From Fimbriiglobus ruber (lineage in GTDB: Bacteria; Planctomycetota; Planctomycetia; Gemmatales; Gemmataceae), in assembly GCF_002197845.1 (NCBI RefSeq), contig NZ_NIDE01000001.1:310001-374000 (forward strand): a stretch of DNA of 64,000 nucleotides. Direction: 5' to 3'. Shown piece after piece: positions 17,049-61,913 of this stretch. The notes beneath the pieces were generated by a model. The model was not told where the DNA came from, ran no database searches, and was given only the letters and a program-made list of their open reading frames with translations. The stretch's first letter is position 1. Every line of letters begins with the position of its first letter. The position numbers and the translations under genes are program-made.

Positions 17049-17192
17049 GTGGAGAGTAACAATATTCCCGTCGAAGAATTACACACGGCGTGCCGTATTT
17101 TGGGAATTAAGGCGTTCGGTAGCGCTAGCGACGTTCTGAACAGCTTGTTGGACGCGATTCCGCTCGCGACTAAAACTGCTCTTGGTTTTTAA
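17049..17192 (+). CDS. Small ORF ahead of the ADP-ribosyltransferase gene
   Basis: A 47-codon frame from a GTG at 17049 reads as plausible protein (IPVEELHTACRILGIKAF, then SDVLNSLLDAIPLATKTALGF). It stops 22 bases before the start I prefer for the next gene. The composition looks helical and coding-like, but the ribosome site is weak and no family is recognised. It might be a third component of the cassette, or the remnant of a larger gene whose upstream part is lost. Confidence 0.35.
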   Translation: MESNNIPVEELHTACRILGIKAFGSASDVLNSLLDAIPLATKTALGF

Positions 17193-17214
17193 AAACAAGC
17201 GAGCGAGGAATACC

Positions 17215-18006
17215 GTGGCCAAAAGACGCGAAGAAAACTCAAGTACATTTGACCAAGCAAAATGCCCGAACTGCGAGGAAGAGCAGAGCTTGATGCTTCT
17301 GGCAGATTCCCAAGAAAAAGCAGAAAAACAAAAACGAAGCGGGAAGCCTTTGTTTTTTGTCGCCCAGTTTGGATGCGTAAATTGCAAGACATTGTTTAAA
17401 TGGGCACAAAGAGCCCCTCGATACGTAGTTGGATACCACGGCTGTTCAAGGGATTTTGCGGAAAGTCTTCGTTCCAAAAAGGTTTCGGTTAGTGAATGGG
17501 CGTACAGTGAAAAAAGTTATGAGTGGCTTGGCAAAGGGGTGTATTTCTGGGAAGATGCACCAGGAAGAGCGTGGCAGTGGGCCCGAATAAGGTTTCCCAA
17601 AAACCCTGCTGTCGTGGCAACCACCATAAAATTGGGAGCCTGCGTCGATTTGGCTGATACGAAATTTACAGGCTTGTTGAGCGGTTCTTTTTTGGACCTT
17701 AAGGCTTCCTACGGAGCGGAAAAGCCGCCACGACCTTTGCCGCAAAACCGCAACGCTCCCCAAAGGCCTGGCGAGGAACCCGACGAGGACTTTAAAGTTC
17801 GAAAACTCGACGCCGTCGTGGTAAACAATTTGATTACAATCATGGAGAAGGGGGGTGCGAAAATCCAAACGGTTCGCTGCCCTTTTGAAGAAGGAAAAGC
17901 CGCATTCCCGGGCGCGAAAATCAAAATGCAGTCCCACGTACAAATTGCGGTTCTGGACAGGGAATGCATCGATAAACGAATTTGGTTAATACCGGAGGTG
18001 ATGTGA
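17215..18006 (+). CDS. PARP-like ADP-ribosyltransferase with N-terminal zinc ribbon
   Basis: From a GTG at 17215 with GAGGA ahead of it, the protein has 263 residues; a TTG 33 bp upstream is the alternative. Cys17-x2-Cys20 and Cys54-x2-Cys57 form a likely zinc ribbon. The body then reads YHGCS (74-78), SYEWLGKGVYFWE (101-113) and GRAWQWA. The HG pair followed by GKGVYF is the NAD-pocket signature of PARP/ART enzymes (H and Y of the H-Y-x triad). The third catalytic position is not obvious, so H-Y-E chemistry is unproven. Codon use is AT-richer than neighbours, suggesting transfer. It is translationally coupled to the next gene. A toxin or anti-phage effector is the likely role (inference). 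Confidence 0.6.
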   Translation: MAKRREENSSTFDQAKCPNCEEEQSLMLLADSQEKAEKQKRSGKPLFFVAQFGCVNCKTLFKWAQRAPRYVVGYHGCSRDFAESLRSKKVSVSEWAYSEKSYEWLGKGVYFWEDAPGRAWQWARIRFPKNPAVVATTIKLGACVDLADTKFTGLLSGSFLDLKASYGAEKPPRPLPQNRNAPQRPGEEPDEDFKVRKLDAVVVNNLITIMEKGGAKIQTVRCPFEEGKAAFPGAKIKMQSHVQIAVLDRECIDKRIWLIPEVM

Positions 18007-34748: not shown

Positions 34749-34984
34749 GCGAACGCAAGAGCTAGCCAGCGACTTGCCAATTGTCGCAGCAGAACCGGAT
34801 CTTAAACACAGCTACGTACAGAAGCGCAATCGCTGGGAAAAAAAGCTGCTGGGATTCGGACCCTCGCAGCAAACGTGGTTCTGGTGGCAAGAAGCAGCCG
34901 GTATGAGAACCGTGGTTTGCTGGAAAGATCTTTCTACCCGCGCCTTCCAAATACTTCCTATTTATATCGATTACGAAGTGCGAA

Positions 34985-36740
34985 TTATCCGCCAGTAGGC
35001 CTCGCCTGACGGCGAAGCGTTTCTACCGCTTCGATAATTGGATCTGGCTGAGCAGGTAGCGTATCCCATTCTTTCCAGAAGTCGCGAGTCGCACTTTCGG
35101 GACAGACAGTTGGCTTATCCAACTTTATGCGGGTCGGCAACATAACTGCGTCCCCCAAAACTAACGCTTCTCCTATGTCAAGCAGAGGTAAAATATCAAT
35201 CGCCCCGCCATCGAATCCGGCATAAGCCGACGCACAACCGACTGATCTTCGTCGTTAGTCAAACGCAAAGCCAAAAAATTATTGCACTGACTAAGAATCG
35301 TACGGCTCACGTCGGCAGGTCGTTGGCTAACCACGAGCAATGAAACTCCATACTTGCGACCCTCTTTGGCAATGCGCTCAAAGGATTCCAGAGCGCGACG
35401 CTCAACTTCTGTTGCATCACTTTTGACTGGCAAATAAAGGTGCGCTTCATCACAAACAAGCGTGAATGGTGTTCGTTGCAGTGGTGCCGTCCAAAATTGT
35501 ACGTGATACAACAACCTTGCAAACAATCCCACCACAATAGGTAACACATCGGATGGGACTTCTGAGAAGTCTACAATTTTAATGCCCCGGTGCGATTGAT
35601 TTGAGCCAAGCAGCTTTACCATTTGTGAACTCAGCCAGTCGTACTCAGAAGTCTTTGACGGTGGCTGAAATAAAAATCCGTACCGCCGGTCTTCGATTTT
35701 TGATTGCAATCGGGAGATAAAACGAGTTAGCTTTCCTCCCATTCTCCCTTTATTTCTCTACCACCAGAGCCCGTACTTTTTTGCTTATCATCTTTTTCCA
35801 GCAGATTCAGAAGATCATTAATTGCGTAAGGAATAGGCGAATCAACCGTAAAGGTATTCTGCACATCATTTTTTCCTTCTGCCGATAAACGTTCGCCCTT
35901 CAATGCGCGTACATGAGCAGTAAAGCGAGATGCTTGATTCGGGGCATTTTGATCACTACGATCCAAAATCATTGACAGCATTTCTTCCCTATTTAATAAC
36001 CAATATGGAAGAAACAAAACGCCATCGGCTGGAGCACGCAAATCACCCGGCCCTGCAACACGAAATCCTTGCGCAAAATTACCCTCTCCTTGAGTAAGAG
36101 GGCTGTACTCGCCATGCATGTCAAGGACAATAATGTTGGGGTATTTTAGTTGTTTGGCACGTTCGAGAAGCAAGGCTACCGCCCAACTTTTACCTGACCC
36201 CGTACTTCCAAGAATCGCCGCATGTCGCTGGAAGAGTTTGTCTCCGCATGCAATCGCCAGAGCAGTTGGGTCATTGACAAAATGTCCAAGTCTCAATTGC
36301 GATTCTACAGGTATATCTGCCGCCAATAAGCCCATAAACATTTGAAGATTGTGTCCATCGATCAGATAGCATTCTCGGCCTATCTGCGGAAAAGAATCCG
36401 CTCCACGCTTAAATGTGTTAGTAGCGTCGCCATGCACGGTTCTATAAGTACCAATAAGCACAGCACGAATCAAATCCTCAAATCGTGTTGTTTCTCCAAT
36501 CTCATTATTATCTTCATCGTGATCCAAATGCACCCCATCCTTCGCCGAACGGGTCAGACGCTCTACCATGCCGATCAATAGTTCGTGTTGTGTAGAGCCG
36601 CGAATTGCCAGAAGGTTACCCACGCAGAGACGGGATGCGTGTTCAGGGTCGCTCACCTCAATAGCAACCCTGCTGGTATCAACAGCAACAACACTACCAA
36701 TGTCTTCGCCATCATCAAAGACAAATATTGGCCTGCTCAC
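34985..36740 (-). pseudogene. herA: HerA-type ATPase/translocase of a SIR2-HerA defence pair, two frameshifts
   Basis: The native start is a GTG at 36740 overlapping the SIR2 stop as GTGA. The first part reads SRPIFVFDDGEDIGSVVAV, Walker A GSTGSGKS (178-185) and IIVLDMHGEYSPL, then stops at 35727 after REIKGEWEES. One base shift at 35738-35740 restores GGKLTRFISRLQSK and Walker B FTLVCDEAHLYLP, with arginine-finger region SQRPADVSRTILSQCNNF. A second shift at 35203-35206 restores AIDILPLLDIGEALVLGDAVMLP and the end at 34985. The repaired protein has 585 residues, the usual size for these HerA proteins. Family members form hexamers that assemble with SIR2 NADases against phage. As read it would give two truncated polypeptides. 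Confidence 0.85.
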
Positions 36741-37779
36741 GATTTGAATACCTCGCTGATAAGCCCAAACACATCCCACATGCCACTATTTGGGATAAAA
36801 TCATCGCTCGATCGAGTTATGCATCTTGTCCCAAATGTGGCCCACTTGCCCCTTGTACTAAGGCGATAGCCTTGGGACTTTCTCTTATCATCTTCTCTGC
36901 ATTTGCCGTAAGCCCCATTGCCATAATAACAGCAGGCTTACCATCACGAAGTCGCTGAGAGAGGTGCGTCTCTAGGTGATTGTCATTAAATCCATAACCG
37001 ATAATTAAAAAACGACTCGCATTATCGATTGCATCATTAGCTTTTTCACGATGCCGATCAAATGGTTCATGATAGCCGGCAGCATACTTACTTAGGCCCG
37101 GAGTAATAATCAACGGCGATTCATCTAGTTCTAGCGAGCACCGTATTGTCTCGTCTTCAATCCGATACCAGTCAAGACTGCCATGCGGCTTGTACAGCCT
37201 AATTCGATCGAGCCATTTCAAGTTATGCTTTCTTCCGCGAATCTGTATCGATTTTGCACAAATATATTTTGCAGTTTCCGGTTCATATATTCCGCTATAG
37301 TGTCCGACAAACATAGAATCGGCTGGCTTTCCAGCTTTTTCTACCGCGCATTCTATTAGTCGGTCGTAATTAGTCGTAATAACCGGAAGCCCTGCTGCAG
37401 GAATAACCAAGTGCGGCAATAGACGAGTTAACCGCATTTCTTTTCTATTTTTTATGCAATTCTTAACGACACGGCATTCATGCTGTCGGATAAAATTTGC
37501 CGTGTGGAGCACGATTGCCGCGACAATATCTGTAGTAGGATTATGTTTACTTAGAGCCGACTCTAGATCAATTCCACTCTTAATATCTGCGTTGATTTCC
37601 TGCCATTCTGACACCAACGCGCCATTTTCTAGTCCGTTTGCAACATGTTCACCAAGATAGTCGCCCAATCCTTTCATTCCGGGAATACCTTCTGCCATCG
37701 ACAGCCCCGAGCCAACAATTAAAACAAGTCCATCTGTAAAGTGGTTCTGAAGCGTTCTTTTCAGCTCGTCAATATTCAT
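36737..37779 (-). pseudogene. SIR2-family NADase of a SIR2-HerA defence pair, C-terminal frameshift
   Basis: SIR2-type defence proteins deplete NAD+ on infection. The frame shows the NAD-binding GSGLS (23-27), TTNYDRLIE (135-143), the HGSLDW catalytic segment (199-204) and FLIIGYGFNDNHLE. As read it ends early at 36817. Adding one base within 36841-36852 continues into GTRCITRSSDDFIPNSGMWD and VFGLISEVFKS, ending at 36737. That end overlaps the HerA GTG by four bases, exactly as expected for an operon, so the shifted end is the ancestral one. The repaired length is 347 residues. The pair sits in AT-rich DNA between core genes, consistent with horizontal gain. Confidence 0.85.
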
Positions 37780-38282
37780 AGCATACGCTCATCAGCACTT
37801 GCGGCATGCGATTATTAAAATAATATGAATCAAAAACAATAAGACTAAACAATCTAATAAATTGCATAGCAACTTCGCATGCTTGTTTTCCATTTCTGAG
37901 TTAATTCACTTTAACTGCCGAGATCGGCTATGCAAAGTACATTTCAGATTTTTGGTAAATGCTCACAAGAATCGGATTGCTGGCAGACCATCGCGGCGCA
38001 AGTCGTTATCAATAAACTAGACTCAGAAATCTGGAATTCTCCCTTGGAGCGAGGCTAATTCGAGCAACTAATTCTGTTGAGCGATTTTACGCAGACAAAT
38101 TGTTCGAAGATAGAGGGATTGTAGCGAATGTTCGGCGCAGCTGGCCTTCAAAAAGCTGGCCTATAAATCCTTTCTCAACACCCTGCAACGGTGCTACAAG
38201 TTTACCTCGATCCCACCTCATTTGGGGATTGTGGATATTAGCCCGGTGCCCGGCGAAGCCGCGGGCACCGGGAAGCGGCGGG
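37780..38282. other. AT-rich upstream region of the SIR2-HerA island
   Basis: This AT-rich stretch lies upstream of the SIR2 gene and should carry its promoter. A segment near 38145-38235 reads as coding-like in one plus frame (QLAFKKLAYKSFL, TLQRCYKFTSIPPHLGIVDI) but has no start and could be a remnant. The composition returns to GC-rich at about 38240, marking the island edge. A short palindrome CCCGGTGCCCG...CGGGCACCGG lies at 38243-38271. Confidence 0.5.
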
Positions 38283-38435
38283 TTATTTTGCGGCCGGCGT
38301 GTATTTCGCCGGCTCTTCTTGCGCTTTCTTGGCACAGTCGTCACAGCAAACGACAACCTCCTTGCCGCCAACTTGGACTTTGATCCCGCCGTCTTGAATA
38401 TCCCAATCGCAGACGGGGCACTTCACCGGCTTCAT
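38283..38435 (-). CDS. Small zinc- or heavy-metal-binding protein (TRASH-like)
   Basis: The product has 50 residues from the ATG at 38435, preceded by GAGGA about eight bases ahead. Cysteines are arranged KCPVCDWDI ... VVVCCDDCAKKA, the CxxC...CCxxC pattern of TRASH/YHS-like metal-binding peptides. The rest is Lys/Gln rich. Such small proteins serve as metal chaperones or sensors. It is followed upstream on the same strand by an AraC regulator, which may or may not control it. Confidence 0.75.
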   Translation of the reverse strand: MKPVKCPVCDWDIQDGGIKVQVGGKEVVVCCDDCAKKAQEEPAKYTPAAK

Positions 38436-56351: not shown

Positions 56352-57302
56352 GAGGCTGTCCGAAAAGTGACCTTGCTGTAAGTTGTGCGTCTCTTGTAAG
56401 TTAGTCGCTCCTTCGTACTCGAGGAGCGAAGTCATGGATGCGACCGTTCGCAAACCGTATCCGACCGATTTGACCGACCTCCAATGGGAGATCATCCAGG
56501 TCGTCCTGCCGGCCGCCCGACCCGGAGGACGCCCCCGGTCGGTGGACCTCCGGGAGGTGCTGAACGCGATCGTGTACGTGAACCGGTCGGGGTGTCAGTG
56601 GTCGATGCTCCCGCACGACTTCCCGGCCAAGAGTACGGTGTACGAATACTTCGCCCAGTGGCGGGACGATGGCACCTGGCAAGAACTCCTGGATGTCCTC
56701 CGGGAGGGGTATCGGGAAGTCCACGCCCCGAGTCACGAGCGGACCCCGAGTGCCGCGAGCATCGACAGCCAGTCGGTCAAAGGGACCGAACACGCGGGCG
56801 GGAACGGGTACGATGCGGGCAAGAAAATCCAGGGCCGGAAGCGGTCGATCGTGGTCGATACGCTGGGCCTGCTGATGGTCGTGGCGGTGACCGCCGGGCA
56901 CGTCGACGACGCGGCCGCGGCCCCGACCGTACTCGAAGGGTTGGACCGTGACGCGTACCCGCGATTGAAGGTCGTGTGGGCCGACGGGAAGTACCACAAC
57001 CATGCCCTGAACGGGTGGAAAGACGGCCACCCGGAACTCGGATGGGAACTCGTCATCGTCCGCCGACCGGACGGGGTCAAGGGGTTCACCCTGTTACCCA
57101 AGCGGTGGGTCGTCGAGCGGACGTTCGGGTGGCTCGGGCGGGCCCGGCGGTTAAGTCGTAATTATGAGCGACTGAATAGTTCCAGCGAATCCATGATTCG
57201 TGTGCGGTCAATCCAGCTGATCCTCAATCGCATGGATCCACAAGAGCGTTATCCCCCGTTTAAATATAGAGTTGCATCAAAATAGTCTTCCCGGACAGGC
57301 TC
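56352..57302. mobile_element. IS5-family insertion sequence, 951 bp, TTA target duplication
   Basis: The ends GAGGCTGTCCGAAAAGT (left) and GAGCCTGTCCGGGAAGA (right, inverted) match with few changes. The flanks are TTA on both sides (56349-56351 and 57303-57305), the usual 3-base TNA duplication of the IS1031/IS427 type. It contains one transposase gene on the plus strand. Confidence 0.92.
56434..57285 (+). CDS. IS5-family transposase
   Basis: From the ATG at 56434, with GAGGAGCGAAGTC upstream, the product has 283 residues in a single frame. It starts YPTDLTDLQWEIIQVVLPA and carries ASIDSQSVKGTEH (first Asp), VVWADGKYHNHA (second Asp) and LPKRWVVERTFGWLGRARRLSRNYERL (the final Glu helix). Everything needed is present. 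Many relatives use a programmed frameshift between two ORFs; this one does not. Confidence 0.93.
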   Translation: MDATVRKPYPTDLTDLQWEIIQVVLPAARPGGRPRSVDLREVLNAIVYVNRSGCQWSMLPHDFPAKSTVYEYFAQWRDDGTWQELLDVLREGYREVHAPSHERTPSAASIDSQSVKGTEHAGGNGYDAGKKIQGRKRSIVVDTLGLLMVVAVTAGHVDDAAAAPTVLEGLDRDAYPRLKVVWADGKYHNHALNGWKDGHPELGWELVIVRRPDGVKGFTLLPKRWVVERTFGWLGRARRLSRNYERLNSSSESMIRVRSIQLILNRMDPQERYPPFKYRVASK

Positions 57303-57483: not shown

Positions 57484-58752
57484 TTATTTCAAGCGGTTTT
57501 CTGGTTCCACTTCAGCCTTTGGTTCCTCAATGGTTCCACAATTCGCTTTCACCGGCTCGACCATCTTCAGCAACGCCTCGGCAATTTTGAGTTGTCCGGG
57601 CGCGTCGGCGTAGACTTGCGTGGCGTCGAGGTAATGGGCACGGGCCGTTTCCGGAAGCACCGACATCAAGTGAGCGGCCTTGTCCTCGTTGCCGATCACC
57701 TCGACCGCCGTCGTGATCGCACGCCGTTTCAGGCCGTGTGGCGTCATCCGCGGACGGTCGGGGTTCTGATCGCTGTACTCCCGGCAGAGATTGTTCAGGA
57801 CGAAGTAAACGGTCTTCCACGAATACGACTCGGGCAGACCGTTACTCATCTTCCGGAACTTCGGTATGTCTTTAAAAACCCCTTCCCAAAGATGAACCTT
57901 CCCGGCGGTCGCTTTGAGATCTTCGCGGAGGGAATCGGGGATCGGGAAAACCCGGTCGGTCTTGGTCTTCACGACCTCGGCGGGAAAGACGAGAAGGTTG
58001 CCGTTAAGGAATTCCGTCTTGAGTTGGCATACGTCCGAGGTTCGGCACCCTGAAATTAATTTGATCTTCAGCAGAGTGTGGAGACTGACCCAAGCCGGGT
58101 AGCGGGAATAAACCCACGCGAAAAAATGCGTCGTCTCGTCCCCGGTCGGGACGTGTTTCATTTTGCGTTCACCCTTCTCGATCTTAAATCCGTACCAAGG
58201 GTTTCGCGTCAGGACGCCGAGCTGAACGAGGTGATTCGAGAACGAGGACAAGGCCCGCATGTAGTAGGAGAGAGTGGCCGGGCTTCGCGGTTTGGCCGGG
58301 ACTGATACCCTCTTTTGCTTACTGGTCCCCGCAAGCCACAATTTCGCGAACCGACGGACGTTCTCGTCCGAGGCGTCGAGGGGACTGCCCATCTCGGGCA
58401 TGGTCTCTTTCACGGCTTTGACGGCGGCGCGGAAAGACCTGATGGTTTCGTCCCGTGCGTTCGGAGTCGTGGTAATCACTTCCTCTAAGCAGTCGTCCCA
58501 CGATTTGTTTTTGATCGACGGAAAGAGGGAGGGCGGACGGTAAACAGCTTTGATGATTTTGGCCGCGTCTTCATGAAACTCGGCAGGAGGATTCTTCCCC
58601 CTGATGTCGTGGACGGTCAGGATTTTTTTTCGCTTGCCCGCGTCGTCATCGAACGCGACCACCCACTTTCCACGATCGGCCCGGGGATTGGCCGCGTAGG
58701 GAATCTTTACGCCGTCCCCGAGGTCGACCGCGAAATCGTATCGTCGTCCCAT
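57484..58752 (-). CDS. Tyrosine recombinase / integrase (module B)
   Basis: 422 residues. The N-terminal 220 hold SAM-like and core-binding regions (RPPSLFPSIKNKSWDDCLEEV, YYMRALSSFSNHLVQLG). The catalytic domain has the first Arg in SGCRTSDVCQL, the lysine in VVKTKTDR, HGLKRRA for the His-x-x-Arg box, and the nucleophile Tyr in ARAHYLDATQVYA. It lies next to the tRNA 3' fragment and should catalyse integration there. It is paralogous to the truncated gene at 52669. The C-terminal 40 residues are acidic and unusual. Confidence 0.93.
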   Translation of the reverse strand: MGRRYDFAVDLGDGVKIPYAANPRADRGKWVVAFDDDAGKRKKILTVHDIRGKNPPAEFHEDAAKIIKAVYRPPSLFPSIKNKSWDDCLEEVITTTPNARDETIRSFRAAVKAVKETMPEMGSPLDASDENVRRFAKLWLAGTSKQKRVSVPAKPRSPATLSYYMRALSSFSNHLVQLGVLTRNPWYGFKIEKGERKMKHVPTGDETTHFFAWVYSRYPAWVSLHTLLKIKLISGCRTSDVCQLKTEFLNGNLLVFPAEVVKTKTDRVFPIPDSLREDLKATAGKVHLWEGVFKDIPKFRKMSNGLPESYSWKTVYFVLNNLCREYSDQNPDRPRMTPHGLKRRAITTAVEVIGNEDKAAHLMSVLPETARAHYLDATQVYADAPGQLKIAEALLKMVEPVKANCGTIEEPKAEVEPENRLK

Positions 58753-58760
58753 TTGATCCT

Positions 58761-58787
58761 CCGGTAAGGTTCAAGAGATCTTACCGG
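58761..58787. promoter_or_regulatory. Palindrome upstream of the integrase (module B)
   Basis: CCGGTAAG (58761-58768) inverted as CTTACCGG (58780-58787), directly upstream of the integrase start codon. It is a likely operator for integrase autoregulation or for the HTH protein. Confidence 0.5.
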
Positions 58788-60297: not shown

Positions 60298-61737
60298 TTA
60301 TTTTTCAGAATAAACACAATTCGCGAAAAGAACGACATTTTTAATGGTATCGATTTGCGTCTCCAGCAAACTTTGCTGACTACTGTCGATCGTCGAATTG
60401 TCGATGAGGGAAAGTCTATTCCTCTTGTCAGGGAGAGCACATAAAGAAATTATCAATACGGCCCGCAGGTAGGAAATACATTTTCCAAGAATTCCCTCCG
60501 GTCCTCCATAGCCTTTTATCCTTTCACTTAAATTTGCGTTAATTTTATTGTCGCCGTGAACGAAATTACTCCGAATTTTATATGCGTCGGAGATCAGTGC
60601 CTTCACATCTAATGGACTAAATCCAACAATTCCAAGCAGCGTCGGGAGACGAATTTCGAGCTGATATTTCTTGCCTTTCCTGCCATCATTTTCCCGAACG
60701 AGGAGGCTTTCCAAACCAGTTACAGCCGTAGCAATCCTGTAATCGTCTAGACCCTGCTTTACGAGGGCATCTGAAAAGCGGTGATATCCAGTTGCCAAAT
60801 GATCTACTCGGGTATTTTCTTCCAAGAATTGATCTGAGACGAGTCGGGGGGACAATTGCTCGCAAGCGATCTTAAATTTCTCTTTGTTATTGTCAGTTAA
60901 AATTGCAAACGACGGCCTTCCCGGATTCTCATTAGTGCAGATGGTATTAGTTAACTCCCCACGCAAGGTCACGCTGGTGCATATAGCCGTCCTGATCTTG
61001 ACAGCTTTTCCCGTTGCCAATCGTAGAATCGCTCTAAACCAACCGATAATTTTCATGACATCTTTAACGCCCGAAAAATTCCCCTCAAATTCCCCAATCG
61101 CATCACTTCTGTCGTCGGCCAATGCGTGTTCAATTCCCACGGTAGCCGTGTATTCAAAATCGGTTGGCACAGGCTGACGTATCTTTAAGTTCAGGTCGTC
61201 GAACTTCAAAGAAAGTGGTTCGCAAAGAACCACCAGTCCGACAATTCTTAAAGAAACTTTTACTAGTTGCCCCGCAAATGCATTTCTGTCGTCGGCGGGG
61301 CGATCAACGAGTGCTTCACGCATTTGATCCGCAACGGAAATCGAAACGTCACTTCGGTTAAAAGCGTGATCCAGAATGTTGCCTAGATATTGCTTGAGGT
61401 GGTCTTCTTTTGTTCCGTTTGATAGTACTTCTGCCCATTCAAGGCACGAGGACAGGGAAATAATTATCTGTGCGATTTCATTCGTCCACACACCTTTTTC
61501 GCTTAACTGGCCATGTCCCGCAAAAGTATGCAATCCAAAGTCGTTGTACAAAAATCGGTCCCGATTCACGGTACACGTCATCATTGCCCGCGAAAATGTT
61601 GGCCGAGCCCCCTGTAGTTGTCGCATTCTGACCTCGACCACGGCTTTTTCAGCCAAAGTCCGTAAAAGATCAAGCGACCTAATGCGTTGCTCTGCGGTCA
61701 TGTTACCGTCCCTCGACTTAAATGAATACGTGCTCAT
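60298..61737 (-). CDS. Apea-like HEPN domain protein
   Basis: From the ATG at 61737 (AAGG ahead) the product has 479 residues. The C-terminal third reads HRFSDALVKQGLDDYRIATAVTGLESLLV, then KKYQLEIRLPTLLGIVGFSPLDVKALISDAYKIRSNFVHGDNK. The RSNFVHG motif (about 389-395) is the Rx4H catalytic pattern of HEPN ribonucleases, in the Apea-like subtype. The N-terminal 320 residues (LDLLRTLAEKAVVEVRMRQ, ATVGIEHALADD) are not recognised and may sense a ligand. Apea-like HEPN proteins occur in defence islands; RNA cleavage is inferred. The gene is AT-richer than the core genes. Confidence 0.75.
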   Translation of the reverse strand: MSTYSFKSRDGNMTAEQRIRSLDLLRTLAEKAVVEVRMRQLQGARPTFSRAMMTCTVNRDRFLYNDFGLHTFAGHGQLSEKGVWTNEIAQIIISLSSCLEWAEVLSNGTKEDHLKQYLGNILDHAFNRSDVSISVADQMREALVDRPADDRNAFAGQLVKVSLRIVGLVVLCEPLSLKFDDLNLKIRQPVPTDFEYTATVGIEHALADDRSDAIGEFEGNFSGVKDVMKIIGWFRAILRLATGKAVKIRTAICTSVTLRGELTNTICTNENPGRPSFAILTDNNKEKFKIACEQLSPRLVSDQFLEENTRVDHLATGYHRFSDALVKQGLDDYRIATAVTGLESLLVRENDGRKGKKYQLEIRLPTLLGIVGFSPLDVKALISDAYKIRSNFVHGDNKINANLSERIKGYGGPEGILGKCISYLRAVLIISLCALPDKRNRLSLIDNSTIDSSQQSLLETQIDTIKNVVLFANCVYSEK

Positions 61738-61913
61738 TTTACGCCTTCGCACCACAAAAGACTAATGGCGTAGCTCCCTCCGTCGACAAGAAATATTCGC
61801 CCAAGTCAGCTCCCGACACCGACTTAAGATCACATTCGCTCGCGCGATTGACCTTACAAGTCGCCGAGCGTACAATGCCTCCGACCACATTTTTTTTCTC
61901 AGAGGTCGAGGCG

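What the first reader, a model, noticed from the sequence alone, without database searches (positions are those of the whole stretch)
34985..37779. SIR2-HerA defence pair broken by three identical-type frameshifts
SIR2 is disrupted near 36841-36852 and HerA near 35738-35740 and 35203-35206. Each lesion is cured by adding one G at a short G-run on the coding strand, and each cure restores clear family sequence; the first also restores a GTGA stop/start overlap. Three lesions of the same sign in 2.8 kb, while most long genes of the window are intact, could mean decay of a costly defence system, deliberate -1 ribosomal slippage, or a homopolymer undercall.
Basis: partly seen in the sequence, partly recalled or inferred. 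Interest (0 to 1): 0.75.

Follow-up and report, generated by a model that had tools for sequence, protein, structure and literature searches.

The report
Defence gene pair with probable sequencing errors
A planctomycete carries an ordinary SIR2-HerA anti-phage gene pair that reads as broken in three places, and the breaks are most likely missing letters in the published sequence, because the same kind of error occurs across this genome, even in the only copy of an essential gene.

Summary
On the minus strand (37779-34988) a SIR2 gene and a HerA gene change frame three times, and each time the sequence holds one base too few for the family frame. Of 37 related loci, 30 carry both genes intact, and none needs a frame change at these places. 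The pair is a normal member of the SIR2-HerA defence type, in a 42-48% GC island of a roughly 65% GC genome.

The breaks are best explained as single-base undercalls in the assembly. In 361 kb of homology-tested coding DNA from the same genome I found 12 frame changes, all of the missing-base kind. One is in the genome's only lgt gene, which is essential in Gram-negative bacteria. An independent codon-usage scan gave 25 missing against 2 extra, strongly enriched at G/C runs of 5 or more. Two relatives show no such pattern. The island has no nonsense codon and no change at 190 near-invariant positions, unlike a decaying pair.

Three errors in 2.8 kb with runs of only 3-4 exceeds the genome-wide rate, so a local quality dip must be assumed. 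Recent decay is the real rival (about 0.18). Programmed slippage is not supported. Resequencing would settle it.

The parts
36820..37779 (-). SIR2 gene, main part: NADase-type SIR2 domain with TTNYD and KPHGS motifs
   Evidence: PADLOC SIR2 PDLC04082 E=7e-124; Pfam SIR2_2 E=1.9e-12; PDB SIR2 chains 8yhx, 8j4u, 8w9l
36740..36852 (-). SIR2 C-terminal tail, in the next frame, ending in a GTGA overlap with the HerA start
   Evidence: PDLC04082 positions 308-343 (E=0.006); aligns with ortholog tails; overlap also in 25 of 34 orthologs
36833..36852 (-). frame change 1 (SIR2): one base fewer than the family frame
35730..36740 (-). HerA gene, N-terminal part with Walker A GSTGSGKS
   Evidence: PADLOC HerA PDLC04101 E=1.4e-144; Pfam DUF87 E=3.6e-25
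35734..35739 (-). frame change 2 (HerA), directly after the conserved tryptophan
   Evidence: alignment
35176..35739 (-). HerA gene, middle part with Walker B CDEAH and the SQRP motif
   Evidence: PADLOC HerA PDLC04104 E=6.9e-99; PDB HerA 8xau E=1.1e-38
35201..35209 (-). frame change 3 (HerA), at a GGGG run
34988..35209 (-). HerA gene, C-terminal part
   Evidence: PADLOC HerA PDLC04104 positions 308-376 E=2.5e-28
34800..38300 (.). low-GC island that holds the pair; no tRNA, Rfam RNA or flanking mobile-element repeat found
   Evidence: GC 0.38-0.53 against 0.62-0.74 around it

Best explanation
This is a horizontally acquired but ordinary SIR2-HerA anti-phage pair whose three frame breaks are most likely single-base undercalls in the genome assembly, so the living cell probably has both genes intact. 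By analogy with studied members, the SIR2 protein would be an NAD+-consuming enzyme and HerA a hexameric ATPase that binds the SIR2 assembly and switches it on during infection, stopping phage by emptying NAD+ and possibly cutting DNA. Shown here: gene content, order, overlap, intact catalytic motifs, the genome-wide error signature, and the lack of other decay. Inferred: that these three particular sites are errors, and the function.
For: (1) Homology scan of 361 kb of coding DNA of this genome: 12 frame changes, 12 of 12 of the missing-base kind; the two relatives gave 2 each in 132 and 123 kb, at least one of each looking like a plain gene boundary. (2) One hit is lgt. The genome has no other copy, and in every relative whose lgt also matches in two halves, both halves share one open frame, while here they do not (384 against 493 aa). 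Lgt is essential in Gram-negative bacteria (established knowledge). (3) Codon-usage scan: 25 missing-base against 2 extra-base breaks in 1.38 Mb coding; 14 of the 25 lie within 30 nt of a G/C run of at least 5, against 9% of random coding windows; the relatives show 5 against 3 and one such run. The longest G/C run near the 12 homology hits exceeds random (P=0.0005). (4) All three island breaks have the same sign and lie at G-runs, although A/T runs of 4 or more outnumber G/C ones 32 to 10 in the island. (5) No nonsense codon; 0 changes at 157 near-invariant HerA and 33 SIR2 columns. (6) Long-read assembly errors are known to be mostly false single-base deletions at homopolymers of 2-8 bases (PMC12007338).
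Against: The island has only G/C runs of 3-4 at the breaks. With the genome's own rate per run length, 0.01-0.05 errors are expected there, and a triple this dense is expected only about 0.001-0.1 times in the whole genome. Ignoring run length, the 12-in-361-kb rate gives about 0.1 in the island. A local quality or coverage dip must therefore be assumed, and no reads were available. Other low-GC stretches look mostly intact, for example a 1356-aa SIR2-domain gene, so low GC alone is not the cause. The sequencing platform is unknown to me.
Confidence: 0.77

Rival explanations
1. The pair is truly inactivated: a foreign, costly defence system lost its function recently through three small deletions, with too little time since for other damage.
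For: Three breaks in 2.8 kb is denser than the genome-wide error rate predicts. The island is AT-rich and foreign, no same-genus relative carries the pair, and loss of costly defence genes is common. A few orthologs elsewhere also look broken, at other places (L014, L026, L037).
Against: One break would suffice; three frame breaks without any nonsense codon or any change at 190 near-invariant columns is unusual. With about 10 substitutions per indel in neutral DNA (textbook value), about 4.7 such changes are expected, P(0) about 0.01. All three lie at G-runs though A/T runs dominate, and the same signature is found in an essential gene.
Confidence: 0.18
2. Mixture: one or two breaks are real mutations and the others are undercalls.
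For: Would ease the density problem.
Against: No feature separates the three sites; all share sign and run type.
Confidence: 0.04
3. Programmed -1 ribosomal slippage regulates the pair.
For: All three changes have the -1 sign, and two overlaps contain an X XXY YYZ heptamer in the right phase (36835 TTTGGGA, 35751 AAAGGGA).
Against: The third site has none. Slippage at AAAGGGA would replace the tryptophan that every displayed ortholog keeps. At least 30 ortholog pairs read straight through, and three successive slips would leave almost no product.
Confidence: 0.01

Closest known systems
SIR2-HerA anti-phage system (PADLOC SIR2 and HerA models; structures such as 8su9/8j4u, 8wod, 8yhx)
   Same: SIR2 gene followed by HerA on one strand with an NTGA overlap, PADLOC matches at 7e-124 and 1.4e-144, catalytic and ATPase motifs present
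   Different: Both genes read as frame-broken in this assembly; the subgroup is distant from the solved ones (SIR2 E of only 7e-7) and far below NCBIfam's equivalog cut-offs
HerA-DUF4297 and related HerA partner systems
   Same: The closest solved HerA by E-value for the middle part is 8xau, listed as HerA; HerA-DUF4297 uses the same kind of hexameric HerA (PMC12198126)
   Different: The partner here is a SIR2 protein, with no DUF4297 match
Homopolymer-associated false deletions in draft assemblies
   Same: Missing-base sign, association with homopolymers, breaks in genes that relatives keep intact
   Different: Runs of only 3-4 and locally dense; platform not known

Membership tests
SIR2-HerA defence system | SIR2-domain protein with NADase catalytic motifs | tested here: met
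   PDLC04082 E=7e-124; TTNYD and KPHGS read in the sequence, matching the N-Y-D and H residues described in PMC11263360
SIR2-HerA defence system | HerA/FtsK-type ATPase with Walker A and B | tested here: met
   PDLC04101, 04104, 04105; GSTGSGKS and CDEAH present
SIR2-HerA defence system | the two genes adjacent, same strand, SIR2 first | tested here: met
   same order in the ortholog loci
SIR2-HerA defence system | both genes open from start to stop | tested here: not met
   three frame changes in the deposited sequence; whether they exist in the cell is the open question
SIR2-HerA defence system | NCBIfam equivalogs NF042942 and NF042944 above cut-off | tested here: not met
   34.9 of 500 bits and 181 of 850 bits on the fragments; a different subgroup
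SIR2-HerA defence system | SIR2 dodecamer with HerA hexamer, NAD+ depletion, phage protection | not testable with these tools
   needs biochemistry and phage assays
Homopolymer undercall artefact | excess of missing-base over extra-base frame changes in the same assembly | tested here: met
   12:0 and 25:2
Homopolymer undercall artefact | breaks in genes that must work | tested here: met
   only lgt copy is frame-broken
Homopolymer undercall artefact | reads contradict the consensus at the sites | not testable with these tools
   no reads available
Programmed -1 frameshifting | slippery heptamer at each site, consistent with the conserved product | tested here: not met
   absent at site 3; at site 2 it conflicts with the conserved tryptophan
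Pseudogene decay | relaxed constraint beyond the frame breaks | tested here: not met
   0 changes at 190 near-invariant columns, no nonsense codon; very recent loss would also look like this

The most novel reading that the evidence does not exclude
The deposited sequence is right and the pair is kept as a silent defence reserve that is expressed only when slippage or reversion at G-runs restores the frames, a form of phase variation.
Probability: 0.02. Interest if true: 0.75.

Novelty: new member of a known kind. Interest (0 to 1): 0.12.

Why it matters
It removes a tempting story of a triple-broken defence system and gives a warning: this assembly appears to contain a few hundred false frameshifts (12 per 361 kb scales to about 400, an extrapolation), so pseudogene or defence-system counts for this genome, the largest reported for a planctomycete if the identification is right, would be unreliable.

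Tried and rejected
A first version of the frame-change scan used costs that could not detect shifts and found none; it was replaced. The claim that a triple is expected by chance at the genome rate was considered (rate without run length gives about 0.5 such clusters per genome) and not relied on, because with run length it falls to 0.001-0.1. AT-rich DNA as such being error-prone was rejected because other low-GC genes look intact. The closest ortholog, L006, seemed broken at the third site, but its contig ends there in unrelated sequence. Literature on the sequencing method of Fimbriiglobus ruber was not held. Flanking repeats, tRNAs and Rfam RNAs gave nothing. Synteny with same-genus relatives was uninformative.

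Full report
Observation. The minus strand between 37779 and 34988 carries a SIR2 gene followed by a HerA gene, and three frame changes of one sign interrupt them. The fragments match consecutive parts of the same PADLOC profiles, so the homology runs through the breaks. Orthologs narrow the breaks to 36852-36833, 35739-35734 and 35209-35201. The sequence holds one base fewer than the family frame at each.

What the pair is. PADLOC SIR2 (E=7e-124) and HerA (1.4e-144, 6.9e-99, 2.5e-28 for the three parts) identify a SIR2-HerA defence pair. Pfam (SIR2_2, DUF87) and PDB chains from SIR2-HerA and other HerA complexes agree. NCBIfam equivalogs are matched far below their cut-offs, so it is another subgroup. 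A scan of GTDB genomes returned 44 loci, of which L006-L042 are close relatives, from Planctomycetota, Proteobacteria, Acidobacteria, Nitrospirota and others; 30 of these 37 have both genes intact, and 25 of 34 share the NTGA stop/start overlap. Relatives also sit on plasmids (57% identity at best); phage records gave only one weak match, to a terminase.

Setting. The genome is 12,363,577 bases in 20 contigs, which matches the 12.364 Mbp reported for Fimbriiglobus ruber (PMC5915940); the identification rests on size and family context only. The pair lies in a 3.3-kb island of about 46% GC. Among 59 relatives searched, none has a close copy; the best is a 50%-identical fragment in G022. The own genome has only this one.

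Is the breakage real? I tested the rest of the same assembly. Searching 1.66 Mb of it with ORFs from two family members covered 361 kb of coding DNA and gave 12 frame changes, all with one base missing; the same test in the two relatives gave 2 each in 132 and 123 kb, at least one of each looking like a gene boundary. Several of the 12 are insertion-sequence genes, which may really be broken, but others are a DEAD-box helicase, an aminotransferase, kinases and lgt. lgt occurs once. In relatives whose lgt also gives two matched halves, both halves share one open frame; here they do not. A loss of Lgt should be lethal in a Gram-negative bacterium (established knowledge), so this break is almost certainly an error.

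A second scan, by codon usage alone, found 25 missing-base and 2 extra-base breaks in 1.38 Mb of coding DNA. Fourteen of the 25 have a G/C run of 5 or more nearby, against 9.4% of random coding windows. The relatives gave 2:2 and 3:1, with one such run among eight. The assembly therefore has a homopolymer-undercall signature. Published work on long-read assemblies describes the same signature (PMC12007338).

Decay or error at this locus? For decay speak the density and the foreign origin. The genome's own rate per run length predicts 0.01-0.05 errors in the island, so three are unexpected unless quality was locally poor. Other low-GC genes in the sample look intact. Against decay: no nonsense codon and no change at 157 + 33 near-invariant columns, where about 4.7 changes would be expected if three indels were accompanied by a usual load of substitutions (the ratio of 10 is from general knowledge). 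Breaks at G-runs are also surprising for natural slippage in DNA where A/T runs of 4 or more outnumber G/C runs 32 to 10. I weigh this at about 0.77 for error, 0.18 for decay and 0.04 for a mixture.

Programmed slippage. Two in-phase heptamers exist, one site has none, and the one at the first HerA site conflicts with a conserved tryptophan. Orthologs need no slippage. I consider it very unlikely.

Mechanism. If intact, the pair would work like studied SIR2-HerA systems: SIR2 forms a dodecamer, a HerA hexamer binds to it, NAD+ is consumed, and phage DNA may be degraded (PMC12198126 and PMC11263360). None of this was tested here.

Limits. No reads, one sample of 13% of the genome, distant reference genomes, and an organism name inferred from size.

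Noticed in passing
G000 C3:132380-133650 (L178, L179): The genome's only lgt gene is frame-broken in the assembly, next to a CCCC run; probably a sequencing error.
   Followed up: yes
G000 C1:212956-217023, outside the window: An intact 1356-aa low-GC gene with a SIR2 domain at its N-terminus, a likely second defence gene.
   Followed up: partly
window 56371-57282 (+): An IS4/5-type transposase; a close copy elsewhere on the same contig (C1:445607-446517) carries a missing-base frame change.
   Followed up: partly
window 57487-58770 (-): Integrase-like protein (weak Phage_integrase match) beside low-GC DNA at 58.6-62.2 kb, perhaps the edge of a mobile element.
   Followed up: no
window 60301-61761 (-): 487-aa low-GC ORF with no Pfam match.
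   Followed up: no
window 17140-18003 (+): Low-GC 288-aa ORF in a 2-kb low-GC patch, no Pfam match.
   Followed up: no
G000 C1:376.8-391.6 kb, beyond the window's right end: Low-GC stretch with ORFs that look like prophage structural genes.
   Followed up: no
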